From the NCBI RefSeq assembly GCF_000219625.1, contig NC_018207.1:1364001-1428000 (forward strand): DNA of 64,000 bases, read 5' to 3'. The stretch is from Zymoseptoria tritici IPO323. Lineage: Eukaryota; Ascomycota; Dothideomycetes; Mycosphaerellales; Mycosphaerellaceae. The position numbers were made by a program, and so were the translations under genes. Positions 29,270 to 63,779 of the stretch are shown one piece after another. The notes under the pieces were generated by a model, which was given only the letters and a program-made list of their open reading frames with translations, had not been told where the DNA came from and searched no databases. Position 1 is the stretch's first letter, and every line of letters begins with the position of its first letter.

Positions 29270-29506
29270 TTAGTTCTCCTTCGGACAATCGGGCCAGCAG
29301 CCGCAAGGTTGTCCGTTCGGGTCATCTAAGTTTACGACGTTAGCAAGTTTATCTCAGCTTCGAAGCCCTGTATTCTTACATGAGTGGCACGGGGTGCCAG
29401 GATCGCCATGAGCGCCAGGAGCGCCAGGAGCCGGAACTGCCAGACCGGTTGTTTGAATGGAGAAGAAAGCGGTCGCGAGGCAGAAGACTTGGACGAACAG
29501 CTTCAT
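29270..29506 (-). CDS. Small secreted cysteine-rich peptide A (60 residues)
   Basis: Two exons read leftwards, 29506-29380 and 29325-29270, with a 54-nt intron (GTAAGA ... GCTAAC ... CTTAG). The product is MKLFVQVFCLATAFFSIQTT... with a clear signal peptide (hydrophobic residues 3-22). A short Pro/Gly/Ala segment follows, then a Cys-rich end: PGTPCHSYDPNGQPCGCWPD and Cys56. The phase-1 intron interrupts the Tyr codon three residues after Cys40, inside a C-x9-C module. The same intron position and phase recur in peptide C and in each repeat of the 41.6-kb gene. I do not recognise the family; apoplastic effector, antimicrobial peptide or peptide-signal precursor are all possible. The open frame upstream of 29506 is leader. 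Confidence 0.65.
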
Positions 29507-29703
29507 GTTGATGCGTTTGGTCGGACAACGGGTCGTAGTGGAGTAGTGGAGTTGATAGCGTCGAGTTTGAACGGACTGTGTTTCGACCGTGTCCGGCTGC
29601 GAGGGTGTCGACGTCGTCGATGGTGCGGTGATGCGGGTGTTCGGATTGAAGGTCCAGTTGCTTGAGTGCGTGCTGAAAGGATGAGAGACGGTCGGGCGCC
29701 GGT

Positions 29704-29716
29704 CGAGCTCTTTATG
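29704..29716 (-). promoter_or_regulatory. TATA-like element shared by the peptide family (gene A copy)
   Basis: The minus strand reads CATAAAGAGCTCG, about 200 bp upstream of the peptide A ATG. It matches GAGACATAAGAGCTTG upstream of peptide C and TATAAGAGCTTG upstream of the 41.6-kb gene. Confidence 0.5.
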
Positions 29717-30468
29717 TCTCGCACACATGTTCATTCGGACCCTCGTCACTTCCCCGAGCACCCTCTCCCTCACCGAGCCCAAGCAGAAGCCGACGCTAAA
29801 CCAGAAACGAGGATTACTACTCCGCATTAGAGCCTGCGGCGCTAGACACAATTATGCTAACCTTTGAAACGAGCCTATGCGTTACGCGCTCGGGTATCGT
29901 ACGTCCGTCGCTGTCCTCGCAAGCTCGGGCTCCGTAGTACTCACTTCCCTCGTTGTTCGCGTTGCTCGTCACCTCGCGAAGACTCACAACTTCGGCTCGC
30001 TTGTCTGTAGACAATTTGAGTTGCCGAAGTTTGGCTGAGTAACCGGCGTTTTAGTGGGCTCGGTCAGAGAGGGTGGGCTCGGGGAAGTGATAAGGGGCCT
30101 TGTCTGACAGTTGGATCAGTAACCGTCAAATGGCGGCCGATCTGCCGTGATCTGATTCCACGTGCCAAGGCTGTTCAAGACCATTGGACAGATCAAGTGC
30201 CTGTCGACAAGGAGATCAAAAGACCTATAGGTACCCCTGCCTTTAAAAGCGAACGACATTCAGATGCGTGTAGTTCCGAGCGATACATGCCAGACAAGGC
30301 AAGTAGCATTAACGTTGTCGCATCTCTCGTATTCCTGACCTTCTTCAATGCCGGCTGCCCCTCGTGTCACATGTGCCTTCGCGAGATACTGACAGTCGGC
30401 ATCTGACCCCCTGCCTCAACGAACGGTGGTGTGATGAACTGCATGTCGCAGTGCTGCGAGTGACAAGG

Positions 30469-30555
30469 CGGGGATGTTGCTGGCACCGATTGTTGCAGGG
30501 CATGCACAGGTTGCAAACTTTGTAACCGAGCGGGGCTTGCCATCATGGTGCGGAG
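30469..30555. repeat. Segmental repeat 2, copy a
   Basis: Patches GGGATGTTGC, AAACTTTGTAACCGAGCG and TCATGGTGCGG occur here in the same order as at 32301-32395. This marks a second duplicated non-coding block in the array. Confidence 0.65.
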
Positions 30556-30763
30556 GTGGGTTGAGGGTTCTGATAGCAATCGAGCTTCAGACGGCGGATC
30601 TGGTGCCAAAGCCGAGGGGTTTCTCGAAGAATCTGTTGAGATGAACATAATGACGAAGTGACAGACAGCCCAAGAGACAAAGGACGACGGACCGAGTAAT
30701 AAGCGAAGTAACGTACGGCAACAGTGATTGAGGATGGTTCGAGGACATGATTAATACCTTGTA

Positions 30764-30892
30764 TTTCGTATAGTAGCGAGGGGTAGTGCTTGCCACTTCC
30801 CTTGCTTTCATTCGTCGAGCTGGTGAGGATCGCATTGCTCGACGATGTACTGTCTTCTGCCTCGCCGCCCTCGTCTTCGCCGTTGATTGCCC
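30764..30892. repeat. Segmental repeat 1, copy b
   Basis: This is the partner of 29143-29245 (TTTCGTATAGTAGCGAGGGG then diverged matches through a cgccg/cttcgcc-type segment). A 155-residue minus-strand frame (31010-30543) covers it, but the homologous block at 29.2 kb is read in other frames, so I treat it as non-coding. Confidence 0.65.
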
Positions 30893-31077
30893 GGTTCATC
30901 GATGGCGCAGTGAGCACCTTCGACCAATGCTCTTTCGGACAAGTGTTCTCGACAAGATGGCTCCCCGTAACAATGCACACTCTGCTACGTGCCATCAGGG
31001 CACAGCGCACCGAGCAGCTGGTTGTCGCGACGTCAGCAAGGTACCTCAGGCTGCGTACGGTCGCCTACTGTGAGGCA

Positions 31078-31176
31078 TCAGGGACCAGGACCTTGAGGAC
31101 CCGGGAGCTGTGCTCTGAAGGCTTGACCAGAGAAATCAGCGGCCACGAGGCAGAAGGCTTGGATGAAAAGCTTCAT
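31078..31176 (-). pseudogene. Broken copy B of the small secreted peptide gene
   Basis: Its signal peptide MKLFIQAFCLVAADFSGQAF is nearly that of copies A and C, followed by a Pro/Gly tract. An in-frame TGA then falls immediately before the codon that would encode the first module Cys (TGC CTC ACA). Below it an intron-like GTAGGC ... GCTGAC ... CCAG remains recognisable. The module is therefore lost: either a pseudogene, or a 32-residue leftover peptide. Confidence 0.6.
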
Positions 31177-31330
31177 GTTGATTCGTTTTCATAAGTGTCG
31201 GGATTGCAATTGAGGTTGATAATGTCGAGTGATTGACGAGGAGTGCCGGAGTGCAGCGGTCTCGACGATGTGGCTGTCAATAGAACTATTGAAAAGTGGA
31301 TGCTCGAGTACGAACCAGGCGGATACTCTG

Positions 31331-31435
31331 GCCCTTTATGCCGCGACTCTGTTGCCGCCATGTCAATTCAAACATGCGAGGCCCGACGATTCGCCGTCGA
31401 CAAGGAACTGCTAGAGCAAATGGCGCAATGGACTC
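31331..31435. repeat. Duplicated upstream block of peptide genes, copy b
   Basis: This block, from the TATA-like CTTTATG (31334) through CATGTCAATTC and CCCGACGATTC to GAGCAAATGGCGC, matches 32000-32095 upstream of peptide C. It shows that promoter and upstream DNA were duplicated with the gene. Confidence 0.75.
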
Positions 31436-31565
31436 CACGCTGCTTGAGGGCGCAACGCGAACCTGCACGTACAACGGCACTTCTAGACTATAGCACTAGT
31501 ACTACCCCCTCCTCCCGCCTTCGCCCGCTCATCGGCCGGCCGTACTCGTAGAGACGTATCGAAGA

Positions 31566-31755
31566 TTAGCACCCATGGATGGTTGGGTTCCCTTAGCGAT
31601 GCGACGTTAGCAAGACATTATTGGCTTGTGAATCTCAGCGTCTTACATGTAGAGCATGAGCGTCCTTCACCTTGAGCAGCCGCAACCGGAAGGCCGGAAG
31701 TCTGCCCAGCGAGAAGAGCAGCGACGAGGCAGCAGACTTGAATGAAGATCTTCAT
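31566..31755 (-). CDS. Small secreted peptide C (44 residues)
   Basis: Two exons read leftwards, 31755-31647 and 31591-31566, with a 55-nt intron (GTAAGA ... GCTAAC ... GCTAAG). The product begins MKIFIQVCCLVAALLAGQTS, a strong signal peptide, and ends GRSCSTWNPTIHGC, so the last residue is the second Cys of a C-x9-C module. The phase-1 intron splits the Trp codon three residues after the first Cys, the equivalent position to peptide A. The intron resembles that of A (both contain TTGCTAACGTCG), which supports the splice model. After signal cleavage only about 22-25 residues remain. The function is unknown; it is related to the 41.6-kb repeat protein by signal peptide, leader and module. Confidence 0.62.
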
Positions 31756-31852
31756 GCTGATGCTTTTGGACGAGCGTCGGACCGTGATAGACTTGGAGTG
31801 CGGACTTTTGCGTAGATGACGTGAGTTTGGATAGGTGTCAGATCGCAACGAG

Positions 31853-31970
31853 GTCGATGATGTGGCTGTTCGTAGAGGAGAGGTGGATGCTCGACCGCGT
31901 TTCGATGAGACCAGGTCGATAGTGTGGCCGCTTGTAATGAAGATGCAGATGCTCGAGTGCGTGTTGCGGA
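31853..31970. repeat. Two tandem ~65-bp units in the peptide C leader
   Basis: A phrase like GTCGATGATGTGGCTG ... GGATGCTCGA at about 31853-31893 recurs as GTCGATAGTGTGGCCG ... AGATGCTCGA at about 31915-31955. A related single unit occurs at 31244-31303 upstream of copy B. Confidence 0.6.
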
Positions 31971-31995
31971 GAAGGAACAAACAGCGGCGGATGCG

Positions 31996-32006
31996 CAAGC
32001 TCTTAT
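31996..32006 (-). promoter_or_regulatory. TATA-like element of peptide C, identical 11-mer to 41.5-kb gene
   Basis: The minus strand reads ATAAGAGCTTG, 240 bp upstream of the peptide C ATG. It is identical to 41497-41507, and the following bases (CATCCGCCG..CTGTT) are also conserved. Confidence 0.6.
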
Positions 32007-32095
32007 GTCTCGACTTCGGTGCGTACATGTCAATTCCATCATGCGTGACCCGACGATTCACCGTCGATGAGGAGTCGCCGGAGCAAATGGCGCCA
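31996..32095. repeat. Duplicated upstream block of peptide genes, copy c
   Basis: Partner of 31331-31435, as described there. Confidence 0.75.
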
Positions 32096-32300
32096 TGCAA
32101 TCCCTGATGCGCGAGCGCGAGCCGTACTGCAACACGAATACACGCCAGAGCCGTCGGATCGACGAGTGGCAGTGAGATCCGCCGATGGGCTGCAGTTGTC
32201 TCAGCTGAGGAGGAGGAAGAGCAGAGCCGTGAGACGGCGGCAATGCATCAAGATGCATAAATCACAGTCCTGCAGGTGATCGGGCGGGGAAGATGGAAAG

Positions 32301-32395
32301 CTGAGGATGTTGCCTGACATTTAGTGCAGGAAACCGCACAGGGCGAAAACTTTGTAGCCGAGCGATTCTCGTGGCATCGTGGTCATGGTGCGGGC
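32301..32395. repeat. Segmental repeat 2, copy b
   Basis: Partner of 30469-30555 (GAGGATGTTGC ... AAACTTTGTAGCCGAGCG ... TCATGGTGCGG). Confidence 0.65.
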
Positions 32396-32814
32396 ATCGT
32401 GTGATGTGAAAATAGAAACGCTCGCGTAATGGCACTCAATGGTGGGCAGAGTACCGGATACAGGCCGTGTCTGGCACAAGGTCTTCACTGCTACCTCGAC
32501 AGCGAGTGCAAAGACAAGGCGTTGCTGAGGGTGGGCTCCTCATCTTGCCGATGACGGTGCGCATAATCCATCTGTCAATCAGCAATGCGGTCGTGCCCAA
32601 GGCATTGGAGCATAGCAAGCACGCATTTGCGCTTTGCTTGCCGCCAGACTTGACTTCGGCTCATAGCAGCAGACATGAAACGTACAGACAAGATCCATTC
32701 ATAAGCTACCTTCAAGAAGCTGAGGCGTATCATTGTTTCCGATCCTTTGCATACCAGCTCCGTCCATCCAAACTGCAGGTTTGGTCGAAGATCATGCGTA
32801 TCAGCCGGTCATCA

Positions 32815-35038
32815 TCATGCGTGTTTAAGTGTGTCGACTGAACTGTTGGCACCCGAGTCCTCGCACTTGCCATCAAGACTTCCCTTGACTTCGGTCGTCG
32901 TGACACCACCATGCCGATATGCATCGCCTTCGGCTTGCCTTGACAGAGCCTGCTCTTGTTCCAAGGTCACATACGGCTGCCACGGGAGTTTGCCGTACTC
33001 GGAGAACGAGCTTCCCGGGTCGGTCGTGGGAATCTGATGCCATGCACCTCGCCATCGACCGCGGCCCAGCAATTGATGCAGACATCGATGAAGTTGCACG
33101 GCTCCCATAAGCTGCCACATCTTGTAGCCGCGATCGGAAGTGGGCGAATCGTCTGGCTTTCTCAGTCGCAGCCACGGCCATAAGAATTGCATCAGGAGGC
33201 CTGCAAAGATGACCGCCCCTTGGATGGCAATAACAAGCGCCAGCGCTGCTACGCTGAAGGACTGATGCCGATGGCTCCGGACCTTGATGCGGGAGTGCAT
33301 ATATTCGCGCATTGGGTCCGCACTCCAGGGATCGATCATGCCCCATCGAACCGCTGTCGGAGCTGGCTTCTGATACATGGCAAGGCTGTCGCCCTGGGCC
33401 CTGCTCAAGGCCAAATTCATGAAGTTTTGAACTTCTCGTTGCCAGTGGTTGTTTGGTATATCGATGTCATTGAGGTTACCATCACCCATCATGCGTGAAA
33501 GCAGGAGTTCATCAGTGCCAAGCGAGTTCTGGTTCGACTCGCCGAACGTGACGGCCCTGTGGATGTATTCCATACTTTTGGCAAGCAGTCGCTGTTCCGC
33601 ATTGAGGCCGAGCTTATCCCACAACGCATCATTACTGCGGCCGGAGAACCATTCGGGAACGACGATGTTTTGGTCTATGCATTGGTTGGTGTTGGGATTG
33701 CAGAAGGCGTGCGTCTGGGCGCAGCCAAGTGGCGAGACGGGTCTGTACGCGCCATAATAATTATTGCCATCGGAGCCTGGGACGACTCGCGTGTTGTTGA
33801 GCCAGGGATCGCTCACTGGGGCATTCAGGTCCAGTCGATTGGTGAGGAAAAAGAGCGTTACCGGAGCATCCGATGTTCGCAAGGCCGAGGACATGTTGAA
33901 GATTGGTGGATGAGGGAAGCGACCCTGGAGTACGTCTTCTGATGCAGTGAACAATAGGATCGGTCGCTCCTTGCCAATGTCTTGTGCTTTGGTATAGTAA
34001 TAGGTGATGTTAGAACCAAAATCGCGGCTGTAGTCGTAAACCTCCTCAATCGAGCCCGAGCCTGCGGGATACGCGTACCAATTGTCGCCATAATAGAACA
34101 GCAAAGTGTCGTTGACGCCGTTGTGATTGACGTAGTCGGAAGTCATGTAGCCATCCGTCTGTAGCGGTGAGCATGTGACCGAGGTCTGGATTTCCAAACG
34201 AGCATGCGGCGCTGAGTTGATGCCCAGGTGGTCGTGCGAATTGATCCTGCCAGAATCGATCCGGATAACCTGGTCCAATGGGACTGCACACAAGTCCTGA
34301 GCAAATGGGCAGCTTCCAGGAAACGAAACAGTCGTGTTGATGTACCGCCGAACGTAGAGACCGCACATGCCCGAGCCGAAACTGTGAGAAATGTCGTCGT
34401 GGTTTGGATCTGGGTAACAGCTGGCCGCATAAGATGAAAATGCTCGCCATTCGGCCTGCTGGGCCGAAAGTTCCTCGCGTGCGATTTTTTTCCAGACGGT
34501 CTCTCTAGTCTCATCGTCGGGGAAATGTCCAAGACTCTGGTTGACAGAGTTCGGTCGCGTCTTGAGCAGTACTTGTCCTTCGCTTGAGAGCACAGGAAGC
34601 CAAAAGCTGCTGGCGTTGTTGAATATGAGCATAAGGAGCCCAAAGCTCGTCCATCGCCAGGCACGCCATCGAAAGGCGCCGCGCCTTTTGCCCCAGGCCA
34701 TACCTAATCGGAACATGTTCCACGAGAACTCGCCAGGGCTGTCATCATTCCGCAACGACAGCTGTGTTTGGTGAAATAGTCCGTCTCTTGGCTCGTACGT
34801 CGCACGTCGCTGTGGTTGAGGTCAGTACAGCATCAAGAGCGCGGTACTTCGCTGTCCGCACCAGGAATAGCAGCTGGCATAGAATCTGCCACAGATACTC
34901 TCCAGTCAAGGCCGTCAAGACTGCAAGAGCGATAAGAAGAAGATTGGTCTCATTCGTTGTAAGCGTCAACCGAGCACGGAGGAACGGCGACTGGCCATAG
35001 TCTGTCCAGTAGCCCCTCACAATATCCCGAGACGACAT
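32815..35038 (-). CDS. Large fungal membrane protein of unknown function
   Basis: Two exons read leftwards, 35038-34829 and 34761-32815 (67-nt intron), giving 718 residues. Helices are visible near residues 30-60 (LLLIALAVLTALTGEYLWQILCQLLF), about 100-120 (SFGLLMLIFNNASSFWLPVL) and about 575-600 (VAALALVIAIQGAVIFAGLL). A large Cys-containing, N-glycosylation-motif-rich central loop (several NxT/S such as NTT, NDT, NIT, NNT) suggests an extracellular or lumenal domain. Motifs SRDIVRGYWTDYG at the start, LRNDDSP after the splice, and GKLPWQPYV near the C-terminus resemble a widespread uncharacterised family of fungal membrane proteins. The C-terminal tail is polar and cytosol-like. I cannot assign a function. 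Confidence 0.82.
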
Positions 35039-37371
35039 GTCGTCGGTTGGCGTCCAGGACTTTCGCCTCGTGGGTTAAAGAGAACTGAGCCCAGTGCGTG
35101 GTTGCTGGACGACGGAGGCGTGGAAAAAGATGAATTGTTGAAGATCCGTCCGTGTCCGGATTGGAAGGCGAGATCAGCGTCCTACTGAAGTAGACTTTTG
35201 TGTGAGACAAGGTGTAGCTGCAGCACCCCCGAGGCCGTGGGGGGAGTATCACGCCATGTCCTGTACAACGCCGACGCGGTAGAGCTTGCTTCACATCATC
35301 GGAAGACCCGGATAGGCCTGGCAGTGGCCAGCTTGACAAAGTCGATGTTGCATTTGCAGCCCACGAGAATGTTCGATAAGAACGATGCAGTCTGCGCTGT
35401 CGACTATGTTCTCCGCACCCGACTACTTGGTACGCTCTGCTGAAGGATGACCCTTGCAGACAGAAATGGCGCCAGGACTTTTGTACGTCAGTGCATACGC
35501 CAGTGCTGAACTTTGTGTAGAAATTCACCTGTCGCGCAGGGAATGCATCCCACGGCTGTTAACTTGCCATTGAAGTCCTCGCTCCCATTGGTGTCCGCTT
35601 TTCTGGGTGCCTGGGCTGTGAAATTGACCGACGACGTTCTCCCGGGGATCTTGGGGATCGGCGTGGTTTCACGTTCTTGCTGTCTGGCATCTTCCAGCGC
35701 ACGGCAGCATCGTTTCCTTCGGCGAGCGTGTATCCGCTGTCTACGTTGCTGCTGTAGAACTACAAGCCGACGTCAAGGCTATCGCGTTGGGCGTACCGAT
35801 AGTGCGCAAGACAGTCATCCAAGTCTTCCGTGCGGACTGTAATACAACGGCACCGTGCACACTGTGAACAATCCGGCCATCACTCCCCCTCTGTCTCTCA
35901 CCGCACGTTCGCATCGTTCTCCTTGGCGAGTGTTCGTCGGCCTTCGAATGCGACACCGTCATTTGCCGATCGATTGTCAGTCTGAGACTCGGACATGGGT
36001 ACCTAGTCGCGTGAGTTGTTGACCGACAGGCCTTTTAGGTCGCTGAGATCGAGCTGCGGATCGGCGAGGATCGTATGTTACACCTTCCAGGTCTGAGACT
36101 ATATCATCAGCGTGGAGCTTGAATGAAGACTCGTACTTGTACAGTGGTCCTTGCTATTTTTGGCTGGCAAAACGGACAGCAGAGGTCCGCGGAGTACGAG
36201 GTAAAGGCGATATAAGATCGACCAGGGTCTTGCGAATGAGCACTGGTATTATTATGTGTCGTTCAATGGTGTATTTGATGCAGCGTGACGGTGTAACTGT
36301 GACTGCATTGGAAGTCGTGGGCAGAAGGCAGGCATTTGCATTTGCACGACTTGGCAGCCTCTACGTCTCCGAGCAGTTCCGACCAAGAGGCACAACGTAT
36401 CGTCTGCGGACTGCATACGAGAAGCAGAGCTTGAGCCGACAATTGAATCGAAGCCCTCGAGCGACGTCTTCTCCCGGCAGGAATCAAGGCATCCTCGCAT
36501 CTAAATTGGTGTGGAGCGGTCGCTCTTGTCTCCAGGCAGTGAGCACTACTTCTTGCTTTTGGTCCAGAGGCTGTAAATGTGTCTTTGTCCAATGATCAAC
36601 ACTCGGAGCTCGGTGAACCTCTGTCAACAGGCAGGTCGCAGCGACCGGGCGTGCTCGGCGCCCTGCAACACGAGCGGGATGAACATCTCCCGCCTAACTG
36701 CGCTGCCGACGCCTCCGGTACCAGGTCTATCGCTTGGCATCTTGTGGGCGCGGCGCGGTTTTCGATGCGACTGGTCGAATTCTGATGACGGCGTAGGTGA
36801 AATTGATGGTGTTGGCCTCGATGAAGCTGTGTACAAATCCGAGTGCCTCGGAGTTGGTGGAGCAGGAGGATCAAGCTTTGTGACCAAGCCTCACACCTCG
36901 TCCGGCGAAGCTTTTGAACGACTTCGACCTTGTGCTTGACTTTGTAACAACGCGTGTGCTCTCGACACATTGGATTGTTCGAACGACATCTCCTCCTGCG
37001 ACTCGACCTCGTAATTGTGGACTCCCGAACGGCCGAATACGGGAACTTGGTCAGAAAACGGCAGTGCTCCGAGCGATGTAAGCTCATTCAGCCGGATGTG
37101 GTTTGGCTGCGCTCGAAAATGCCTCATACATTGTGCCAACAATCTCACGCACATGTCGAACATGCGGCTGCCACGCGAGCCTCGTAGGTCGCCTGCATGA
37201 AGGCGATTCTGCTTTCTCTCTGGATTGGTGGGTCGTCAGCGAGTATATTGCAATGACACTGCATTCCTCACCTTATCGCGTCTGCTGCAGCCGGACTACA
37301 AGTCAAGGCCCTTCCCTGTCGTAACGCGCCCTTGGACTTGTTCTGCATTCTCTCGCGACCGGCAGCCCAAG
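35039..37371. other. 2.3-kb intergenic region
   Basis: No supportable gene. The divergent promoter zones of the membrane protein (left) and the HAK transporter (right) must lie here. The longest open frame (36119-36595 plus) has no recognisable domain and is overlapped by others. Confidence 0.4.
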
Positions 37372-39824
37372 ATGGAGAACGACCGATCAATACGCTTCGA
37401 TCCGGACGCCATACTGCCTGCTCAGGCTGTCTCAAGCGGCGTCGACATCGATGGCGGAATCGTGAGCTGCCATGGACGAGGCCTGTCATTGACGTTGCTC
37501 TAACCCAGGAGCAGGTCTTCTCCAGAACCGTGTCGGCGTCTGCGCGACCTCAACGCACACACACGTCCAGAACGCTGGACGCTGACGATCCGGCCGAATC
37601 TGGACTCCGCCGACCATCCGATGCCAAGCGGAAACAGGTCTTCGCTGGCAGCAAGTTGATATTCCTCGCATATCAAAGCATTGGAGTCATCTATGGCGAC
37701 ATTGGAACGTCGCCGCTGTACGTCTTTTCGAGCGTCTTTGGCTCGACTGCGCCGAAAAGAGATGATTTGATCGGGGTGCTGTCGTTGATCATCTGGTCAT
37801 TGATCATGATGGTGACGGTCAAGTATATCTTGATCATCCTACATGCGGACAACGAAGGTGAGGGCGGGACTTTCTCGTGCTACTCTCTGCTGTCGAGATA
37901 TGCCCGGATCGCCAACCGCGATCCTCGCGAGGAGCAATTGGTCAACATCGAGCGACATTTGACCAACGACATGCGACCGGCAAATCTCAAAGTTCGCAAT
38001 ACCGTGGAAAACAGTCGTGCTTTGAAGGTTCTGCTGAAGATTGTTGGAATCCTAGCGGTCTCCATGGTCATTTCCGATGGAGTGCTCACTCCCGCGCAGT
38101 CCGTCCTCGGCGCCATCCAAGGTCTCACCGTTGTGACGCCCAGTATCTCGAATGGCACTGTTGTTGGAACAACATGCGGCATTCTGGTCTTGCTCTTTGC
38201 CATCCAGCCTTTTGGAACCACCAAGATCGGGACTGCCTTTGCTCCGATCATCATCATCTGGCTAGGTCTGCTGGCAAGCTTTGGCATCTACAATCTCGTA
38301 CTCTACGACAGCGGCGTCTTCAAGGCGTTCAATCCTGCCGAGGCCTTCATGTTTCTGATACGCAACAAAGAGAGCGGATGGAGGTCATTGAGCGGCATCC
38401 TTCTCGCATTCACGGGTGTAGAGGCGCTGTTCGCCGACCTGGGCGCATTCTCCATGCGAGCGATTCAGATCAGCTGGCTCGGATGGTGCTTGCCTTGCCT
38501 TCTTCTCGCGTATACTGGTCAGGCCGCTTACATTTCAGTCCATCCGGAAGCCTACAGCAATCCAGTCTTCAACACTGCTCCGCCAGGATGCCTCTATCCG
38601 ATTCTCGTGTTTGCAATCCTCGCCGCGATCGTCGCCTCGCAAGCCATCACAACGGCAACCTTCCAGCTGCTCTCCCAGATCATCAAGCTTTCTTACTTTC
38701 CCCAGATCCAGGTAAAGCATACCTCCAAGGTGTTCCACAACCAACTGTACGTCCCGCTGGTGAATTATCTGCTGGCCATCGGAGCAGTGGTCGTCACCGC
38801 CGTGTATCGAAACACCACCGCTCTTGGCAACGCATACGGAGTGTGCGTCATGTTTGTCACATTCTTCGACACGCTCATGGTCACCTTGGTCTCTCTGATC
38901 GTCTGGCGCTTTCCTCCGTATCTCATCGCACTTCCAGCTCTCGCTATCCTCTGCATGGACGGAGCCTTCCTGTCAGCTGCATTGACCAAGGTACCTCACG
39001 GAGCCTGGCTGACCATTGTCATGAGCACGGTGCTGGCAGCGATCTTCACCCTCTGGCGCTTTGGCAAAGAGTCGCAGTGGGCCGCAGAGAGGGAGGATCG
39101 CCTACCACTATCGCGCTTCGTTGAGCTAGGCGAGCACGGCAGTTTCAAGCTCGCGGCCACAAATGGACGACAAGGTGGTGAAGTATTGTCAGTCTCCCGA
39201 GGCTTCGGCATCTTCTTCGACAAGGGCGGCATCAACACTCCTCTGGTATTCAACCATTTCATCAACAAGCTGGTAGTCACACCCGAGGTCATCGTGTTCT
39301 TCCATCTCCGTCCTCTCGAATATCCGACGGTTCCAGCGGCCGAAAGATTCATCGTCTCGCAAATCAAGTTCTTGCCAAACTGCTTCCGGGTAGTCTGCCG
39401 ACATGGATACATGGACGAAGTTGTAACTTCAGATCTCGCCGCAATCATCTACGGCCATGTTCAAAGCTACGTCCAGGACAAAATCCGGCATGATCAGACC
39501 GCCACGCTCTCTCGGACCAGCACTCTTGATGAGAAGACACATATCGACCACCCGATCGATAAAGATTCGCCCGAATTCGGAGTGGCCGAAATCACCGCTC
39601 CCGATCCTGCGGTGACGATGGAACAGCTGCAACAAGCCTACGATTATCGTGTTCTTTACATCATCGGCAAGGAAGAAATGCATATAAAGCGCAGCAGTCC
39701 CTTTTGGCGCAAAGCCGTGCTTGCAATTTTCCTGTTCTTGCGGGACAACTCACGGAACAAGATCGCAAACTTGAAGGTGCCTACCGATCGACTTGTGGAG
39801 ATTGGCTTCGTGAAGGATGTATAG
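37372..39824 (+). CDS. HAK/KUP-type high-affinity potassium transporter
   Basis: Two exons, 37372-37461 and 37509-39824, giving 801 residues. The 47-nt intron has an ideal donor (GTGAGC), branch (CTCTAAC) and acceptor (CCCAG), so I prefer the start MENDRSIRFDPDA over a longer unspliced frame beginning at 37332. The KUP-family N-terminal signature LAYQSIGVIYGDIGTSPLYV is at about residue 85, followed by about 12 hydrophobic helices up to about residue 540. A cytosolic C-terminal domain follows (VIVFFHLRPLEYPTVPAAER, then CFRVVCRHGYMDEVV). The family mediates K+ uptake across the plasma membrane, usually with H+ co-transport. The length is typical for fungal HAK proteins. Confidence 0.95.
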
Positions 39825-41053
39825 ATGTTGAAGAGGGCAGGAGACATAGCACAAATCACGACCGCCATTTCAAACAAGTCTCGTTCGAAGACGCTTGCAT
39901 CGAGTCCACATTTCCGCATGCTGAATGTCCACCTGCCGTTCCCGGGCAGCTTTGAGCGATCTTTCACCGAAACAAAGCCACCCCGATTTTTAGTTCGTCG
40001 TTCCAGGACAGGAGTCCACAGTATGCTGCAAGCCACGCGAGCGGCGATACATTCCTGGAGATCAAAAAAGCACGATTGAGTTTGAGCAACCTTTTGAGAG
40101 ACCTTGTTCCCCGTCGGCAGCGTGTTGCCACGCCGAAGCGGTCGCCGCTTGCAGGCTCCGAGGATTATTTCCGGGGCCAGATTGATGCACTTACTGGCAA
40201 AGCCATTGAACTCGCGTGACCGCGTCCAAGGTTCGAGCGGCGACCATTCCGATGCCTTCAGATGCTGTAAAGCTCAACGGCCGTTCTGCGGTCGACTCTC
40301 CACGGCCATTTCTCATGACGACTTCTGCCAGATTGCTCGCTCGAGTGCAAAGATTGCCAACTTGTGCATTCCCTTCAACGAAGACCGCCAACGACTCTGC
40401 AAATCTTCACGCCGCCCTCACGATCTCGTCTTCATCCTCAAGAACTCAGCTCTTTGAGAATAGATCTTTGGTTCATGCGAGAGCAGGCATGGCACAGGCA
40501 TCGAACCCTTGTCCGCGGAGAATCATCCGTTGAGGCCCAGCTTCCGCGTGCACTAGCAAGGAAACCGACTGCGCAAAGCTCGGTCAAGTCCGCTTGTGAC
40601 TACCGTATTAGTCTATTAGAAGAATTGGGGGCCTGAAATAGGATTGTGAACCATGCATTGTGCGGCGACTTCACCGATCTTCTCTGGTGCCACCCTGCTC
40701 TGGTAACATCAACACAAAGGCTATCGGCGGGACTTGACAGCAGCTTGACGAGTCGTCAGAATCCATGACTGAGCACCAGTACAACTTGTCGACGCAACGG
40801 CTTTGCGAACCTTGCGTCCTTGGCAATCGATGCGACCCTCTTCACCTTCCCTGACCCTTCAGCATGAACGCCACTCATCCCCGAGAATCGAGACGCACTG
40901 CCACCTCCAGATGGTAAGAATGCAAGTCGAACGTTCAGGAGAACCGCTTCGATCTTTCCTACCCTGTTGACGCCACCTCGACTTGTTCGCTGCGACTGCG
41001 GCTTGCCGATACGAATGAGACGGAGTTGCGGTTCGTGAGTCTGCGATGGCCAC
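39825..41053. other. 1.2-kb non-coding stretch 3' of HAK
   Basis: I see no supportable gene. Frames are short and lack domains; the first part is probably 3' UTR. Confidence 0.4.
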
Positions 41054-41470
41054 CTTCAACACGAATGCTACCATGGCCGAGATGCAGCACCACCTGTCGA
41101 TGCAACAGATCAGGGATATGCGCACCGTGCGTCTCCAATCGCCAGCTTCAACACGAACGTTACCATCGGCGAGATGAATCGCCGCTTGTCGATGTAACGG
41201 ATGTGTGCGCCGTGCGTCTGCGATGACCAGATTCGGTCGGAATAGTCCCCGTCGGCGACATGGACTGCAACGTTTCGGTGCAACGCACATGCGAATCGTG
41301 CGTTCGCGATAGACTTCTTCGACGAGAATGCTGTCCATCGGCGAGGCCGACCGCCACCTGTCGACGGGTCTTCCTTGACAACCTTCAACATGAACGCTCT
41401 GCATCGGCGAGACCGACGGCAACTTGTTGTGCCCATGGTGGAGGTGGCGCCGACAGCATCGCATGCTCGC
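41054..41470. repeat. Degenerate tandem repeat, about five units of 70-92 bp
   Basis: Units start at about 41054, 41146, 41231, 41314 and 41383. Each contains a version of cttcaacacgaatgct followed by accatcggcgagatg, then cacctgtcgatg, and most are followed by a gcg(c)accgtgcg-like phrase. A sixth, weaker unit may precede at about 41005. A 217-residue minus-strand frame runs through it, but the units are not multiples of three and drift in frame, so I call it non-coding. It lies directly upstream of the four-module peptide gene. Confidence 0.75.
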
Positions 41471-41496
41471 AGCAGCGTTCGTGGGAAGGCAGAGGT

Positions 41497-41507
41497 ATAA
41501 GAGCTTG
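41497..41507 (+). promoter_or_regulatory. TATA box of the four-module secreted protein gene
   Basis: TATAAGAGCTTG lies ~120 bp before the ATG at 41626. The 11-mer ATAAGAGCTTG and the following CATCCGCCG.CTGTT are shared with the leader of peptide C on the other strand at 32.0 kb. Confidence 0.65.
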
Positions 41508-41625
41508 AACATCCGCCGGCTGTTCGTCCATCTTCATCTCATTCACAAGCATCCGCATCATTGACTGCATTGCAATCCTGCCGGCATCTCATCACTTCGG
41601 TACCACAATCTTGCCTTGCTTCATC

Positions 41626-42413
41626 ATGCCTTCATCAAAGCACTTCGACACCCAGCTTGCCATCCGCAGCATCTGGATCATGGCCGTACTGTTCGCCGGC
41701 CAGGCGATTGCTGCACCCGTTCCTCTACCGGGCGCGATCGATTCCGTTGATGGTGGACTCCAGCCGATCCTCGAAGGCAGCTCGACTATCATCCCTCGCA
41801 ATGAGCCCGGGCACTCTTGCGTCACGAGTGAGCAGGGTGGACATCCTTTCCGAGAATGTTGTTGACAATTGACAGACAGCCCGAGCGGAGGATGTGAGGA
41901 CGAGGCAGTCGTCGAACGCAGCTCCGAGGAGCCATTCTCCAAAGACAGCCCGGCCCTCATCCCTCGCAATGGGCCTCACCACTCCTGCACCACAAGTGAG
42001 CAGATTGTACATGCTCCCCAAACGTAACTGTGCTAACAATTGACAGACAGCCCGAACGGAGGCTGCAAGGATGAGGCAATCCTCGAACGCAGCTCGTCCA
42101 TCATTCCTCGCAATAAGCCTGGGCACTCTTGCGTCACAAGTGAGCGCAGTAGCTGTCCTTCCCGCTAATGCAGCTTTGCTAACAATTGGCAGACAGCCCG
42201 AACGGAGGCTGCGAGGATGAGGCAGTCCTTGCACGCAGCGTCGACGCAGAGCCACTCGTCGAAGAAAGCGCGGCCATCGTCGCTCGTGCTGCCCCTGGAA
42301 ACTCGTGTCTCTACAGTGAGTAAAGTACATACCCCTTGCAAAGGAGCCTTTGCTGACGATTTCAAGACAACCCGAGCTACGGCTGCGCAGCGGAAGCGGA
42401 AGCGGGTTCTTGA
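41626..42413 (+). CDS. Secreted four-module repeat protein, one module per intron
   Basis: Five exons, 41626-41827, 41876-41995, 42047-42139, 42193-42315 and 42367-42413, giving 194 residues. A signal peptide is present (IWIMAVLFAGQAIAAPVP). The mature part has four C-x8-C modules: PGHSCVTNSPSGGC (Cys65-74), HHSCTTNSPNGGC (105-114), PGHSCVTNSPNGGC (136-145) and PGNSCLYNNPSYGC (177-186). Acidic spacers such as EDEAVLARS and a basic turn IPRN lie between them; the end is AAEAEAGS. Every module is cut by a phase-1 intron (48-53 nt) at its Asn codon. The internal exons of 120, 93 and 123 nt are therefore symmetric repeat cassettes, and the introns themselves are alike (TGCTAACAATTGRCAG ends). It is related to peptides A and C. 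Function unknown; secreted effector or processed peptide precursor are options. Confidence 0.72.
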
Positions 42414-51677: not shown

Positions 51678-54242
51678 TCACAACCCCTTCCAAAACACCG
51701 TCTCCTCGATCTCCAACACCGCACTCCTCGGCGTATTCTTACTACTCGTTCCCACCAAAACCGTATACCCTCCCTTCTCCGAGACCCAGCCATCCCTCCC
51801 TTCATGATAAAAGCTAGTAGCATACTTCTTCGACAGCTTCACCTCCGCCTTCGCAGTCTCTCCCGCTTCCAGAAAGACCTTGACAAAACCCTTCAACTCC
51901 TTGACCGGTCTCACGATGCTGGGACTCTTTGGCGCGACGTAGACTTGCACGACTTCTGCGCCCGCGAGGTTGCCTGTGTTGGAGACGTCGATGGAGACAA
52001 GGACCTCGTCGAAATCTGGTAATGACGAGATTTGAGGTGCGCCGAGAGAAAAGGTGGTGTAACTCAACCCATGGCCGAAGGGGAAGAGAACCTCCTTCTT
52101 CGTCTTTTCGAAGAAGCGATAGCCGATGTAGACGTCTTCGCCGTACAGCACACGGTTGTCGTCGCTGGTGAAATTGAGGAAAGCCGGGTTATCTTCGTTG
52201 CGTTTCGGGAAGCTCAGACTCAATTTGCCAGATGGATTCGTGTTCCCGTAGATAACATCCGCGATCGCGTTGCCGGTCTCGTTGCCGCCGTACCACGCCT
52301 GGACGATGACGGCCGCTTTGTCGGCCCACGGCATTGTGACGGGAGTTCCAGATTGCATGACCACAGCGGTATTCGGGTTCGCGGCGAGTACGGCGTTGAT
52401 CAGATCGTCTGAGCCTGGCGGGAGGTCCATGTGTGGACGGTCGTAGCCTTCGGATTCCCAGTCGCTGTTCAGACCAGCTACCAAGACGACTTGCTCGACT
52501 TGTTTCGCGAGGGCGACTGCTCGGGCGATTTCGTCGGTGATGTTGACTTTGCGGTAACAGCCGAGTCTCAAAGCACCGGCACCGAAAGCCGTGACGCCTT
52601 CTTTCTTGTAGGTGATGGTCGGCAAGGTACCGAATTCGACGTGAACGTCGTACGTCCTCCCGGCTTCGAGATGGATGGATCCGATTTCCTCGCGCGTGCC
52701 GATGCCGAAGAAAGCTTCGCCGGGAACTTGCTTGGTCATGTTGTCGACGACGAGGTTGCCGTCAACGAAGACTTTCGCGGTGCCGGCGACGGAGCAGCTG
52801 AAATCGTACTCGTGAGTTTCCTCGGGAGTGATTTGGCAGTCCACATCGCCGTAGAAGAGGAAGGTGTCTAGTTTTGGGTTCTTGTAGTCGAAGAGTGAGA
52901 TCATGGTACTGTCGATGATGACTTCGTCCAGCAGCTTTCGGTGAGGATCTGAGTGTGGCTCGAGGAAGAGTTTCATGGTCAGGCCGCGCTCGCCGGTTTT
53001 TGTCTTGGCGATGTTGGAGAGCAGTGGTAGAGACTTCCAGCCTGGTGCGCCGAGCTCGTATTGTGCATCTTTGCACTTGGCTCGGATTCCTTCTAGGGGA
53101 GTTACCGCGTAGTAGGGCGCGAGAGAAGCAGAACCGCCGCCGCAGTATGCTGCAAAGGCGGCGTTGGGTCCGATCACGGCTACGGACTTTTCTTTTTTGA
53201 AGGGTAGAATCGACCTCTCGTTCTTCATCAATACAATGCTACTGCTGGCGATGGATCTCAGCAGGGCAGAGGTCTCGGGAGTGTTGATGGTGGTCTCTAC
53301 TGCGTTCTCCTCGATCTGTAGTGGGATCAGTTTCTTGATGAGCTTCAAGACTTCGCGGACTCGGGCGTCGAGATGATGCTTAAGGACCTTGCCGCATCCC
53401 ATTGCACGGGTAACTTGGTCTCCTCGGAGTCCAGAAGGTCCGGGCATTTCCAAGTCCAGGCCCGCTTTGATGGCCTCGGTGGTCGAATAGATGCCGAACC
53501 AGTCTGACATCACGAGTCCATCAAAACCCCATTCTTTGCGGAGAATGTCCTGGAGTAATTTGGGGTTCTCGGAGGCGTGTAAACCATTGACCAGATTGTA
53601 CGCGGTCATGTACGCCATCGGCTTCGCATCTCGCTGCGCGATCTGGAATGGCAAGAGGTAGACTTCCCGCAGGGCTCGCTCGGTCAGGATACTGTTGCTG
53701 GACATTCGCTTGTCCTCTTGATCATTGCATACAAAGTGCTTGAGTGTGGCAGCAACTCCAGTCGATTGGATGCCGTTGATGGAAGCGGCAGCCATATTGC
53801 CAGCAAGCACCGGATCCTCGGAGAATGATTCGAAGCCTCGGCCACCGAGTGGTCCTCGTTGCATGTTGACCGTGGGACCGAGCAGGATAGATGCACCTTT
53901 CGCGATGGATTCTCTTCCCATGAGCTCGCCTCCCTTCTTGATCAGGTCGACGTCCCATGTCGCTCCCAGAGCAGTGCCTACAAGATGTCAGATGATACTG
54001 TCCATCGGCTCCACTGATCTGATCCACATACCGCAAGGAAGACATGCTGCGGGAACACCTTGGAAGAATCGTGTGCCTCTTATACCGTTCGGGCCATCAG
54101 AGGTTCGGAGTGCAGGTATACCAAGGCGTGGTACGCCAGCCAGGTGCCAGAAGTCCGTTCCTGAAATCAAGGATATCTTCTCTGAGGTCGTGAGCTGAGC
54201 GAGGACATCTTCCACGTCGAAGTCTTGATGATTGGCAACCAT
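51678..54242 (-). CDS. GH3 beta-glucosidase with PA14 domain, probably intracellular
   Basis: Two exons read leftwards, 54242-54032 and 53977-51678 (54-nt intron), giving 836 residues. The start [19 protein letters not shown] is chosen because the GH3 fold begins there; in-frame sequence upstream would add a hydrophobic stretch but is probably leader. GH3 N-terminal domain with [18 protein letters not shown] and the nucleophile in LVMSDWFG (Asp at about 229). The GH3 C-terminal domain is split by a PA14 insertion at about 400-550 ([19 protein letters not shown] ... VFVDG). A fibronectin-III-like domain ends the protein ([11 protein letters not shown]). No signal peptide is seen, as in other PA14-bearing fungal enzymes. 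It hydrolyses beta-glucosides such as cello-oligosaccharides. Confidence 0.94.
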
Positions 54243-54680
54243 GGCGGAAATCTCCAAGGCGTGGAGGGCTTCTGGCAGATGTATGAAGAGGCACGTACAG
54301 AGGGAGGGCTGGAGCAGTGCGCAAGAGAAGGGAGTGCTTGAAAGATCAGAAGCTATGGAATATGAGCTAATAAAGAAATGGAACACTTATCTGGTGAGGA
54401 TCATGGCGGCTAAATGAAGCAAAAGACTGGGTTGCGTCGCCGGAGCGAGAAGCTCGTATAGACCGATCCACGTCTGGCTGCATCGACATGACCGACATGT
54501 CGGCGGCAGTCGACGAGATGCACCTTCCTCGATGGAATCATCCTGGATTTTGCATGCGAAAGCATCAGGATGTATGCGAGGCGGTCACTCGGCGGGGTAA
54601 GATGTCGGGTAGGAGGGCCGCGAGTCCGACGGATGCTGGCGGGGCACGAGTCTTGGCATTGCGAGACGGGAGCGATAGAA
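54243..54680. other. Transition between gene space and repeat block
   Basis: Ordinary composition with normal CA and TG content, up to about 54675. No gene is seen beyond the promoter of the beta-glucosidase. Confidence 0.4.
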
Positions 54681-55949
54681 GCCTAGATATTATTTAGAGC
54701 TTAAGATTTTCTTATTTAGAGCTTATAACGTTAGGATTTTAGCTTAATCCTTACTTTCCCCTCGATAGCGATAATACTATAACTACCTTAGTAAGTATAA
54801 TAAAATATTATAGATATTATATAGGAATATTATATAAGTAAGCTTATTGATTAATATATATAGTATAGTTCGTAGTATAGCGTAGTTTTAGGTCTTAGCG
54901 ATATATAGTAGTTAGATTCTTTCTTTTTTTAAGGATCTAATAATAATATTACTAGTTATTAGTAGTACTTAATATACTTTATAGCTACTACTTATTTCTT
55001 AGTATAATTATACGCTCGATATTATACCCTTAAGGTATAGTATATACTTACTACTTAGTACCTTAGGTTAGTAGTAGTCGATTCTACCTACTATATTTTC
55101 TAGTAGATAATATAAGACTCTTTACGGCTTCTTTATATAAAGGAAAGAGTATACTTAGTAAGTATATAAGTTATCTATATTATATATAATATAAGGACCC
55201 TCTTACGTAAGTATAGTCTAGTCTTATCTCCTCTAAGCTAGGCTATCCTAGCTTTAAAGAGTATAATAGTATATAGATTAAGATAGTTAGATCTAGCTTA
55301 CCTCTTAATATCTAATACTAAGAACCGATAAGCTATAAAGAGATATAAGATCCTATATATAATAAGAGAGGTAAAGAATAGAGGAATAGAACCTAGTAGT
55401 AGCTATATATATAGTAAAGGAGGCTCTTCTCCTCTATTCCCTTCTTTAATAAATCGAGTTATTATCTTCTAAAACCTATTATTTAATACCTTCCTACTTT
55501 AGTCTCTCCCTATTTTATTAAGAGGTAATCCTAATATATAATTTATTTAAACTTACGTACTATAGTATTAAACCCTAATCTATATAGTATTTAAGGCTAT
55601 TTATAGATATAAGGAATCTCCTTCTAATATCTTTACTTACTAATAGGGTACTACTCTAACTATAGAATCTAACGCGGAGGCTACTACCTACTAGCTAAGC
55701 GCTATCTCTATTATAGAGACTATAGATAATACTAGAACAATCTAGTAGAGTACTAACTCGTCTACTCTAGCCGACCTAGAATAAGAGGATATACTAAGCT
55801 ATAAGAAACGGAACTAGGGAACCTAGATAGAATATAAGTTCCTTAAACTCTATAATAAGATTAGGGAACTCTAGAATAAACTAGTTCTATATAGCCTAAT
55901 TATCCTAAGAAGAGAGAAGCTTACGAAACCCTTTATAGGAATAAACTAT

Positions 55950-56360
55950 TTTAATAAAGGTAAGAATAGCCTTCCTAAGTCTAAAGAACTATCTATATTT
56001 AAAGGAAAGACCTATACTAATTATAAGGACTAGCTCTATATAGTAGAGCGTAACTTTTATAGATACTAGGGCTTTATTAACTAAAAGAATTATAAGGTCG
56101 ATTATACTACTAATTATATAGAAAAGCTCTAGTAAGACTACTAAAACCGCTACGTAGACTAACTTAATAACTAGACTATACTAACCTAGACTATAATAAA
56201 GGAAGTTATACTTAACTCTATAGGAATAAAGGCGGAATACTATAAGTAGGCTTATAAATAATTTAGAAAGGCTTTATAAGGGTAGTATAACTAGGTAGTA
56301 ACTAATATATATAAGTAGTCTATATATAAATATCTATATTATCTACTAAGTATAACGAAG
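55950..56360 (+). mobile_element. LTR retrotransposon gag relic, RIP-inactivated
   Basis: One plus-strand frame reads KSKELSIFKGKTYTNYKD, then WLYIVERNF-like text with stops at Trp/Gln positions, and FRKAL..., matching the general pattern of fungal LTR-retrotransposon Gag. Stops are almost all TAG or TAA, at positions where TGG, CAG or CAA is expected. Confidence 0.6.
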
Positions 56361-57402
56361 GAAGGTAAAAAGGAATAAAAGGGAATATATATACTAAGCC
56401 TTACTTAGGGTAGCCTTAGGTCTATATTAGATCTATATTGCGCCTAGAATAGGCCCGATTCCGGCCTAGGGTAGTAATACCCTAGTCGTTCCCTAATAGT
56501 ATCCTCCCCTTCCCTAGCGACCTATTCTTAGGTCGTAAAAGAAAAATAATAAAAAGAAACTTACTAATATCTCGAAACCGACTAATAAAGAAGGAATCGA
56601 ACTATAGTATTTTATGTCCGGTCTCTAGTAAGTTAGTCTATTAAAAACTACTCTAGCTAACTAGGTATAATAAAGTTAGTTTACGCGTAAAAGCGTATAA
56701 TTAGATAGAGTAAGTAACTACGCGTTAGTATATAAATATAGTATATAGCGCCTTCCTAAAGCGGAAATTAGTATAAAAGGAGAAGCTATAAGTTAGTTAA
56801 AGATATACTACTAATAGGAGACTCGAACTAATAGCGCTATAAGAGGAAACCGATAAAAGGAGAAACTATTAGATCGACGCGACGACTACTAGGCTATTTA
56901 AATAGAGGTCGTAGTAATCTAGTCGTATATATAGATATATAGGGCGGGGGGATAGAGGTTTAGTTCCGTTATTATTATCGTCTTTAGTCCTTTTAAGGGA
57001 ATAGAGAGGCGTTTAATAGCTATCCGTAGCCTATATCCGGTACGGTCTAGGCCTACTAGCTATTATAACTAAGACTCGGACTAAGGAGTCTAATATTAGG
57101 TCCTTATTTCCTATATACGCTATAGTATCTCTTCTTAACTACTATTATATAGCGTAAATAGGCCTAATTCTAGTCTCGTAGCTACCTATCTAATATCTAA
57201 GGAGTCTTTAGTAATAGCTTCTTTCTATTACCGACTATTACGGCTTAATAAAAGAGAGGCGTAATTCTAATAACTTAGTAAATAGATAAGTTTATATATA
57301 ATGCTATAGAGAGAGTCTAAGAAGGACTTAAAGATATATAGAAATAGTTACGGCCTTAGGTATCTACCTTAGAGGTAGGTACGGAGACCGGCCGTAATAC
57401 TA

Positions 57403-57416
57403 CCCCCCCCCCCCCC
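57403..57416. repeat. Homopolymer of 14 C
   Basis: Fourteen consecutive C bases at the boundary between the AT-richest segment and a CG-containing segment. The length may be affected by sequencing slippage. Confidence 0.9.
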
Positions 57417-58199
57417 TTTAAGGGCGAGAGGCTCGCGAGTATAGTAAAGGTACGCTAAGCGCGACCCTTAGTATATATACGATATTACGTATCTAGCGGC
57501 GACGACGGTAAGGTATCGTAATAGTAGCGCGCGGCGCTAGTAGTAAGGTAGTACGGCGGTTAGCCGGCGGCGCTAACCGGTTTAATAGCGTAGTAGTAAC
57601 GCTCGCGGTAGTTCGGTAAGTTAGTAGGGCGACGTCTATATTACGACGGTAGACGGAAGGCTCTAGTATAGCGGCGTAGATATAGGACTTACGGAAACGA
57701 CTCGTACGGGAGCTAGAAACGCTAAATCCGATAAGAAACGTTCGGCTAATAAGAGGCTAGAGAACTCCTTTAGTTTTCTTCGGTAGGCTAGTATCGTTTA
57801 GTCGGTTTCTAGTCGTCCGGTCGGTTTCTAGTCGTTCGGTCGTCTATTACTATTATTAGTCCGACGGCTTAGCCGTATCCGTTATTAAGTATACTATAGG
57901 CTAACCTCTATCTATAGTAACTACCTAAGAAGTAGGCTCGCGTTGCTCTAATAGTTAACTAGCGTAGGTTTAGCGATGTCTATATACGGCCGAAGCTAAC
58001 TATAAGAGTAAGGTAAATAAGCGTATACTATAGACCTCCGATATAATAAAGTACCGGCGCTTTAGGTTATAGGTTAGTAGCCGATAAGACCTATCCTAAG
58101 TAACGAGTCTTATCCGGTTTCTAACCTTATAGTAGTCTAAAGGCGACTTAAATAGATAACCTAGGGTAGTTATAATAGAAGTTAGCTACTATAGCGGTA

Positions 58200-59660: not shown

Positions 59661-60413
59661 TACGCGAGTTAAGAAATAGCGGCGCGCGCTTCTACGCTAG
59701 CTTAACTCCGGTAAGTAGCTTAAATAGCTTAAACTAAAGCTAGTAAGGACTCTAGTACGTAGACGAGGAGGCTAGAGGTATTTAGCTAGCGTCCTACGAG
59801 GTACTTTAGTTAAAGGATTATTTAATACTAATGCCGTAATCGAGGATCGTATTAGAAGTACCTTAAGAGGGAATATAGGCTTATACCGAAAACAAATAGT
59901 TATAGAATATAACGAGTCGATTTAATAAGGAAGGGAATAGACGAGGGCGTCCCCCGAGGCTATATACCTACCCTTCGTATTACTAAATGCGTCCCTCCGC
60001 CTAGACTAGGCACCGGTCGTAGTCTAACGTCCGCTCGGGGGCCGTCGTACGCCCGTAAGGTTCGTCCCTCTATAGGATGTCCTAGTCTAGGCTAGATAAG
60101 ATAGTACCGGTAATCTATAGTACTAGGATAGTCTAGGTTAGGATAGGTAGGAGGCGTTATCGTAAGGGTGTCCTTATATTACCCCCCTCCCCTCTCTATA
60201 ACTAACCTTAGTTACGGTAGAAAATTTATAAGCTATTAGCTACTAGATGTCCTAATCTAGAAGGATTTACGGGTCTATAACGTCGCTATATTAATTTAAT
60301 TCTTCTTCTAAACTTTCTCTTTTCTTTACTAACTACTAAAAGTAAGTAATCTAGGGTAGTACTAGTATAGTCTAGTTTAGGTCTAGTAAGGCTAATATTA
60401 GCGTAGACATACT

Positions 60414-61999: not shown

Positions 62000-62024
62000 T
62001 TGTTTGTTTGTTTGTTTGTTTGTT
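62000..62024. repeat. (TTTG)n microsatellite
   Basis: About six TTTG units. It lies exactly at the left edge of the non-RIPped block, where the pol relic is interrupted. Confidence 0.9.
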
Positions 62025-62029
62025 CCATT

Positions 62030-63748: not shown

Positions 63749-63779
63749 TAGGGTTAGGGTTTAGGGTTAGGGTTAGGGG
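63749..63779 (+). repeat. Interstitial telomeric repeat, TTAGGG type
   Basis: Five units, including TTAGGG variants TTTAGGG and TTAGGGG. G-strand orientation points to the right, so the sequence to the left corresponds to the chromosome-internal side. It adjoins the truncated pol relic on the left and non-RIPped DNA on the right. Confidence 0.9.

What the first reader, a model, noticed from the sequence alone, without database searches (positions are those of the whole stretch)
29270..42413. A previously unrecognised family of tiny secreted peptides sharing a split C-x8/9-C module
Peptide A (29.3 kb), peptide C (31.6 kb), broken copy B (31.1 kb) and the four-module protein (41.6 kb) all have a signal peptide. 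The intact members share a module of the form S/P-C-x-x-[N/W/Y]-x-P-x-x-G-C or close to it, and a phase-1 intron at the same codon, three residues after the first Cys. Seen directly: HSCVTNSPNGGC, NSCLYNNPSYGC, SCSTWNPTIHGC, PCHSYDPNGQPC. The genes are far too short for standard gene finders, which would miss the 8- to 19-residue second exons. Candidate roles (inference): effector, antimicrobial or signalling peptide.
Basis: partly seen in the sequence, partly recalled or inferred. Interest (0 to 1): 0.85.

Follow-up and report, generated by a model that had tools for sequence, protein, structure and literature searches.

The report
Stripped-down knottin-like secreted fungal peptides
A wheat-leaf fungus carries tiny secreted peptides with a two-cysteine loop, one gene holding four of them in a row, and their shared intron suggests that they are cut-down relatives of a larger family of six-cysteine, knottin-like peptides in the same genome.

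Summary
All six have Pro at intron codon +2, which was not required. Copy B stops before any mature Cys. The four-module gene D has one protein homologue, in Zymoseptoria brevis, with three modules.

The interpretation changes. Starting from the exon-1 sequence of C, stepwise genome searches reach 10 further loci on five other contigs. All 10 can be read with a phase-1 intron 2-4 codons after the first Cys; the 8 intact ones have six cysteines in knottin-like spacing. Cys2 lies at intron codon +2 in 9 of 10, just where A, C and all four D modules have Pro. So I read the C-x8/9-C module as Cys1...Cys3 of that family after loss of Cys2 and later cysteines, with D made by amplifying the exon-intron cassette.

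Secretion and homology are well supported; release of looped peptides at conserved single arginines, and any role in the leaf, are inference. Expression was not testable here.

The parts
29270..29506 (-). Peptide A gene: 60 aa, signal peptide, four-Cys mature end CHSYDPNGQPCGCWPDCPKEN; intron 29326-29379 (54 nt, phase 1)
   Evidence: no protein homologue found
31078..31176 (-). Copy B: signal-peptide exon like A and C, ends at an in-frame TGA before any mature Cys; relic
   Evidence: 84.7% DNA identity to A over 59 bp and 74.4% to C over 78 bp
31566..31755 (-). Peptide C gene: 44 aa, ends directly after the second Cys (SCSTWNPTIHGC); intron 31592-31646 (55 nt, phase 1)
41626..42413 (+). Gene D: 194 aa, signal peptide and four modules, each split by its own phase-1 intron (41828-41875, 41996-42046, 42140-42192, 42316-42366)
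   Evidence: Z. brevis homologue P0001
41767..42386 (+). Tandem-repeat part of D: repeat unit includes exon end, intron and exon start
   Evidence: self-comparison 71-73% identity over 311-327 bp
31318..31452 (.). Stretch upstream of B that matches the stretch upstream of C (31986-32119), 74% over 135 bp
31986..32119 (.). Stretch upstream of C that matches the one upstream of B

Best explanation
A, B, C and D belong to one Zymoseptoria family of small secreted peptides. The usual member is a signal peptide, a short pro-stretch and a six-Cys knottin-like domain whose coding sequence is split by a phase-1 intron between Cys1 and Cys2. In A, C and D the Cys2 position is Pro; A keeps Cys1, 3, 4 and 5, and C and the D modules keep only Cys1 and Cys3, leaving one possible disulfide loop. 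In D the cassette 'end of one exon, intron, start of the next exon' was duplicated to four modules. How it works (inferred): the precursor enters the ER by its signal peptide, the two Cys close a small loop, D is cut at the single Arg conserved before and after each module, releasing looped peptides of about 24 residues into the leaf apoplast, where they most likely act as small effectors or self-signals rather than as cationic antimicrobials. Shown by calls: open gene structures with splice signals, shared predicted intron phase and place, shared signal peptide, the Pro/Cys2 correspondence, conservation of D and its Arg sites in Z. brevis. Inferred: direction of change (six to two Cys), disulfide loop, cleavage, site of action.
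For: Genome searches: exon 1 of C found L007; exon 1 of L007 and the spliced L012 and L023 then found the rest of the 10; spliced L042 and L021 added none except one chance-like hit, C13:788148, E 0.39, 26% identity, no ATG in the three codons before the match. Mean local scores of the A, C and D signal peptides against the 10 family ones are 40.3, 49.8 and 43.5; none of 2000 composition shuffles or 2000 hydropathy-class shuffles of each reaches them. Intron: phase 1 in 10 of 10 outside loci, 2-4 codons after Cys1, as in A, C and D; for L012 the annotated strain protein P0003 is identical to the spliced reading, and P0002 and P0004 are spliced near-copies of L024 and L025. Cys2 at intron codon +2 in 9 of 10 (L021: +3); Pro there in 6 of 6 modules here, and Pro at the same distance from the first Cys in the 3 modules of Z. 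brevis P0001. Six-Cys loops of the 8 intact members: 3-5, 5-9, 0-1, 4, 4-5 residues. A keeps C-x-C-x3-C. Arg before (R-x-x-P-x-H/N-S-C) in 7 of 7 modules and Arg after in 5 of 5 non-terminal modules of D plus P0001.
Confidence: 0.6

Rival explanations
1. Exon capture: A, C and D took only exon 1 (signal peptide, Cys1, donor site) from the six-Cys family and joined it to unrelated sequence that happens to give one more Cys. The module is then new, not a reduced knottin.
For: Similarity that can be scored lies in exon 1; from acceptor to second Cys there are only 6-7 full codons in C and D; alignment of Cys columns is unstable.
Against: Pro at the same place in A, C and D, whose second exons differ, means that these three share more than exon 1; A keeps a C-x-C...C tail like the family.
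Confidence: 0.2
2. A and C are decaying pseudogenes of six-Cys members and make nothing useful; only D is a working gene.
For: B is stopped; L011 has an in-frame stop and L022 loses its frame, so loss is common; C ends right after Cys3; no homologue of A found.
Against: A and C keep start, signal peptide, donor, branch and acceptor signals and open frames; D, the same module type, is conserved in Z. brevis.
Confidence: 0.17
3. D is a KEX2-processed repeat protein or mating alpha-pheromone precursor.
For: Signal peptide plus repeats of a two-Cys peptide; Dothideomycete alpha-pheromones with two Cys exist (PMC6339444, passages).
Against: No KR, RR, KK or RK in D or in Z. brevis P0001; loop of eight residues without the recalled GQ motif; relatives are six-Cys peptides. 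My pattern search for a recalled W-C-x3-G-Q-x-C pheromone gave 6 hits against 2 for the reversed control, none of which looked like a precursor by eye, so the true pheromone gene was not identified.
Confidence: 0.04
4. D is a ribosomal cyclic-peptide (dikaritin-type) precursor with tailoring enzymes nearby.
For: Repeated short cores in a secreted precursor.
Against: No UstYa-type family among 9 ORFs of the window scanned with Pfam (not every ORF was scanned); cysteines and single Arg rather than dibasic spacing.
Confidence: 0.03

Closest known systems
Six-Cys peptides of the same genome, loci L007, L012, L020, L021, L023, L024, L025, L042 (annotated near-copies P0002-P0004 in other strains; P0002 and P0004 bear the UniRef name 'Invertebrate defensins family')
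   Same: Signal peptide, predicted phase-1 intron shortly after Cys1, residue spacing from intron to Cys2/Pro
   Different: Six Cys in one domain instead of two or four; one domain per gene instead of four in D
Zytrisins and lambda-Zytrisins (Zymoseptoria defensin-like peptides, PMC5234102)
   Same: Same genus, tiny secreted Cys-rich peptides, conserved introns used to argue homology across changed cysteine frameworks, some genes adjacent, some pseudogenes, more than 70% net negative or neutral; two-domain forms in Z. ardabiliae
   Different: [quoted passage not shown] here one phase-1 intron between Cys1 and Cys2, and cysteines are lost
Knottin (inhibitor cystine knot) fungal effectors such as Avr9 and Venturia families (PMC9632046 passages)
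   Same: Six-Cys order and loop lengths of the parent family; secreted by a plant-leaf fungus
   Different: Connectivity unproven here; A, C and D lack the six Cys; sequences not compared
KEPs, KEX2-processed repeat proteins (PMC6339444 passages)
   Same: Signal peptide and three or more near-identical repeats
   Different: No KR, RR or KK between repeats; each repeat interrupted by an intron
MgTRP tandem repeat proteins of Z. tritici (PMC3517617 passages)
   Same: Secreted proteins with internal coding repeats in the same species
   Different: Sequences not compared; whether D is one of the 23 is unknown

Membership tests
Six-Cys phase-1-intron peptide family of this genome | Signal peptide MKxxxQLxxLAAxLFAxQxxAxP type | tested here: met
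   A, C, D scores above all 4000 shuffles each; B by genome search with C
Six-Cys phase-1-intron peptide family of this genome | Phase-1 intron 2-4 codons after the first mature Cys | tested here: met
   A, C and four D modules, third codon; 10 of 10 outside loci by prediction
Six-Cys phase-1-intron peptide family of this genome | Six cysteines in exon 1 end plus exon 2 | tested here: not met
   A has four, C two, D two per module
Knottin (inhibitor cystine knot) | Six Cys with Cys3 and Cys4 close, in knottin-like loop lengths (definition recalled) | tested here: met
   For 8 of 8 intact outside members only; not for A, C, D
Knottin (inhibitor cystine knot) | Knotted disulfides Cys1-4, 2-5, 3-6 and its fold | tested here: inconclusive
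   AF2 pTM 0.32; Foldseek matches are a cyclotide and a spider venom peptide but E 6.6 and 7.5; VIA none
Zytrisin / CS-alpha-beta defensin-like | Phase-0 intron at end of signal peptide and phase-2 intron in Cys4 codon | tested here: not met
   Single predicted phase-1 intron after Cys1 in all against PMC5234102 text
Zytrisin / CS-alpha-beta defensin-like | Cys2-x3-Cys3 and Cys5-x1-Cys6 | tested here: not met
   Loop lengths of 8 members: 5-9 between Cys2 and Cys3, 4-5 between Cys5 and Cys6
KEX2-processed repeat protein (KEP) | KR, RR or KK between repeats | tested here: not met
   None in D or P0001
KEX2-processed repeat protein (KEP) | Signal peptide and at least three repeats | tested here: met
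   D four modules, P0001 three; signal peptide by similarity and hydrophobic core, no predictor run
Ascomycete alpha-pheromone | Two-Cys peptide with GQ before second Cys (recalled) and Kex2 sites | tested here: not met
   D modules lack GQ and dibasic sites; A has GQPC but a single copy and no dibasic site in its 60 residues (sequence)
Dikaritin RiPP | UstYa-type genes beside the precursor | tested here: inconclusive
   None in 9 ORFs scanned; rest of window not scanned
MgTRP | Identity with one of 23 published proteins | not tested
   Sequences not in the passages seen

The most novel reading that the evidence does not exclude
A six-cysteine knotted peptide family has been reduced, within one fungal genus, to a single-loop mini-peptide, and that mini-peptide was then multiplied as exon-intron cassettes into a multi-peptide precursor cut at single arginines. 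The intron is the fossil that ties the two folds together. This would be a second, independent case of fold change in Zymoseptoria secreted peptides, by losing cysteines rather than shifting them.
Probability: 0.45. Interest if true: 0.6.

Novelty: new variant of a known kind. Interest (0 to 1): 0.48.

Why it matters
Small secreted peptides of plant-leaf fungi change so fast that homology is usually lost; here the intron place keeps the link between a three-disulfide and a one-disulfide form, so the question how such folds are taken apart becomes testable. D is also an unusual precursor, in which each presumed unit is coded across an exon junction. The six-Cys relatives and D are candidates for Septoria leaf blotch work; no annotated Z. 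tritici protein matched D or A in the database searched.

Tried and rejected
Pfam: nothing for A, C, P0001-P0005; D gave only RcsF at E 0.044, below its cut-off. PDB profile search: only Ssp1a toxin at E 7.1 and factor VIIa at E 9.8. Zytrisin membership: rejected by gene structure and Cys spacing. Alpha-pheromone pattern: no precursor found. Foldseek and VIA second look: no support beyond weak hits to cystine-knot-like peptides. C13:788148 was dropped as chance. L011 and L022 are counted among the 10 loci for intron place and signal peptide but not among the 8 for Cys loops. Codon differences between D modules (2-9 synonymous, 4-17 non-synonymous of 27 codons per pair) show no clear purifying signal, least with module 4.
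Full report
What and where. The window is contig C12, bases 1364001-1428000, of a genome of 39,686,251 bases in 21 contigs. That size and number are, from recall, those of Zymoseptoria tritici IPO323, and the homologues carry Z. brevis and Z. tritici names.

Check of the observation. A scan that asks only for Cys, a phase-1 GTRAG donor 2-4 codons later, an intron of 45-65 nt with branch-like motif and acceptor, and an open frame to another Cys finds 6 sites on both strands of 64 kb, and they are the six modules. 200 shuffles average 0.415, maximum 3. The settings were chosen with the introns in view; a stricter first version found 3 of the 6 (mean 0.23, maximum 2, in 60 shuffles). Proline at intron codon +2 was not asked for and is present in 6 of 6. 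Within D the introns are copies made with the repeats (71-73% identity); A, C and D are the independent lines. B stops at 31080-31078 before any mature Cys.

Relatives of D. One protein among 5.8 billion matches at E up to 10: Z. brevis TI39_contig896g00001, 160 aa, 55% identity, three modules. Its modules have the same C-x8-C, the same Pro, and the same Arg before and after. I saw its protein, not its DNA, so its introns are inferred. A had no candidate. C was searched only as a row of profile A1.

The larger family. Exon 1 of C as query found A, B and C1:276761. Exon 1 of that locus, and then the spliced proteins of L012 and L023, found the others: in all 10 loci outside C12, at C1:276761, C1:5792050, C1:5793808, C1:5795403, C2:1086941, C2:2990090, C3:2415367, C4:1635586, C7:1081065 and C7:1725635. 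Two more queries added only a chance-like match on C13. Single links to the window are weak (C to L007 E 0.12; L007 to C E 0.11); A as query found only A, B and C, and D's N-terminus only D. The link therefore rests on the score test (A, C and D signal peptides above all of 2000 composition and 2000 class-preserving shuffles) together with the intron. All 10 can be read with a phase-1 intron 2-4 codons after the first mature Cys; the next Cys is at intron codon +2 in 9 and +3 in 1. These introns are predictions: one search lists other possible introns for some loci, L020's was set by eye, and in 6 of 10 the intron is also open in frame. Annotated strain proteins support the spliced reading for L012 (identical, P0003) and for near-copies of L024 and L025 (P0002, P0004), while P0005 is an unspliced reading of L024. 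Eight loci are intact and have six Cys with loops 3-5, 5-9, 0-1, 4, 4-5. L011 has an in-frame stop and L022 loses its frame. P0002 and P0004 bear the UniRef label 'Invertebrate defensins family', though Cys order and intron do not fit defensin-like peptides.

Why the module is read as Cys1...Cys3. In the six-Cys genes the intron lies between Cys1 and Cys2, two codons before Cys2 in 9 of 10. In A, C and D it lies after the first Cys, two codons before a Pro. So the first Cys is Cys1, the Pro stands where Cys2 was, and the second Cys is Cys3; A still has C-x-C-x3-C. Sequence alignment alone is ambiguous: one alignment puts the first Cys of A and C on Cys1, the other on Cys2.

How it may work. 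D has no dibasic site. A single Arg stands seven residues before the first Cys, in the motif R-x-x-P-x-H/N-S-C, in 7 of 7 modules of D and P0001, and another eight residues after the second Cys in 5 of 5 non-terminal modules. Cutting there would give peptides of about 24 residues with K/R minus D/E of -4 to -1 in D. I take these as looped, anionic to neutral peptides acting outside the cell; effector or self-signal is inference, and an antimicrobial role by charge is unlikely. Two of the 8 six-Cys members are +2.

Known families. Zytrisins (PMC5234102; parts 1-3 of 4 read) are the closest precedent in spirit, with a different gene structure. KEPs (PMC6339444, passages) are defined by KEX2 sites between repeats. 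Venturia knottin families and Avr9 (PMC9632046, passages) show that knottin effectors are known. MgTRPs (PMC3517617, passages) were not compared. My searches for a published account of this family or these genes (open-licence PMC papers only, no supplements, mostly listings) found none; that does not show that none exists.

Verdict. Well-formed genes, correct anatomy; the 'new family' is best seen as a reduced offshoot of a knottin-like family in the same genome, with D as a tandem amplification conserved in a sister species. Expression, disulfides, cleavage and function remain untested.

Noticed in passing
window 54001-64000: GC content falls from about 0.55 to 0.37-0.45, an AT-rich tract unlike the rest of the window.
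   Followed up: no
window 63749-63778: Short run of TAGGGT telomere-like repeats about 35 kb inside the contig end (contig length).
   Followed up: no
window 41034-41310: Imperfect duplicated stretch (69% over about 190 bp) upstream of gene D.
   Followed up: no
window 29737-29781 and 30055-30099: Inverted repeat of 45 bp, 82% identity, upstream of peptide A.
   Followed up: no
G000 C1:5792050-5795672 (L011, L025, L012): Three six-Cys-type genes side by side, the first with an in-frame stop.
   Followed up: partly
L022 (C3:2415367): Six-Cys-type gene whose predicted splice leads into a shifted frame; probably a relic in this strain.
   Followed up: partly
window 37332-39824: Single-ORF HAK-type potassium transporter between C and D (K_trans, E 2.8e-157).
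   Followed up: no
window 32815-34755, minus strand: 646-aa ORF with no Pfam family at E 0.001 between C and the transporter.
   Followed up: no
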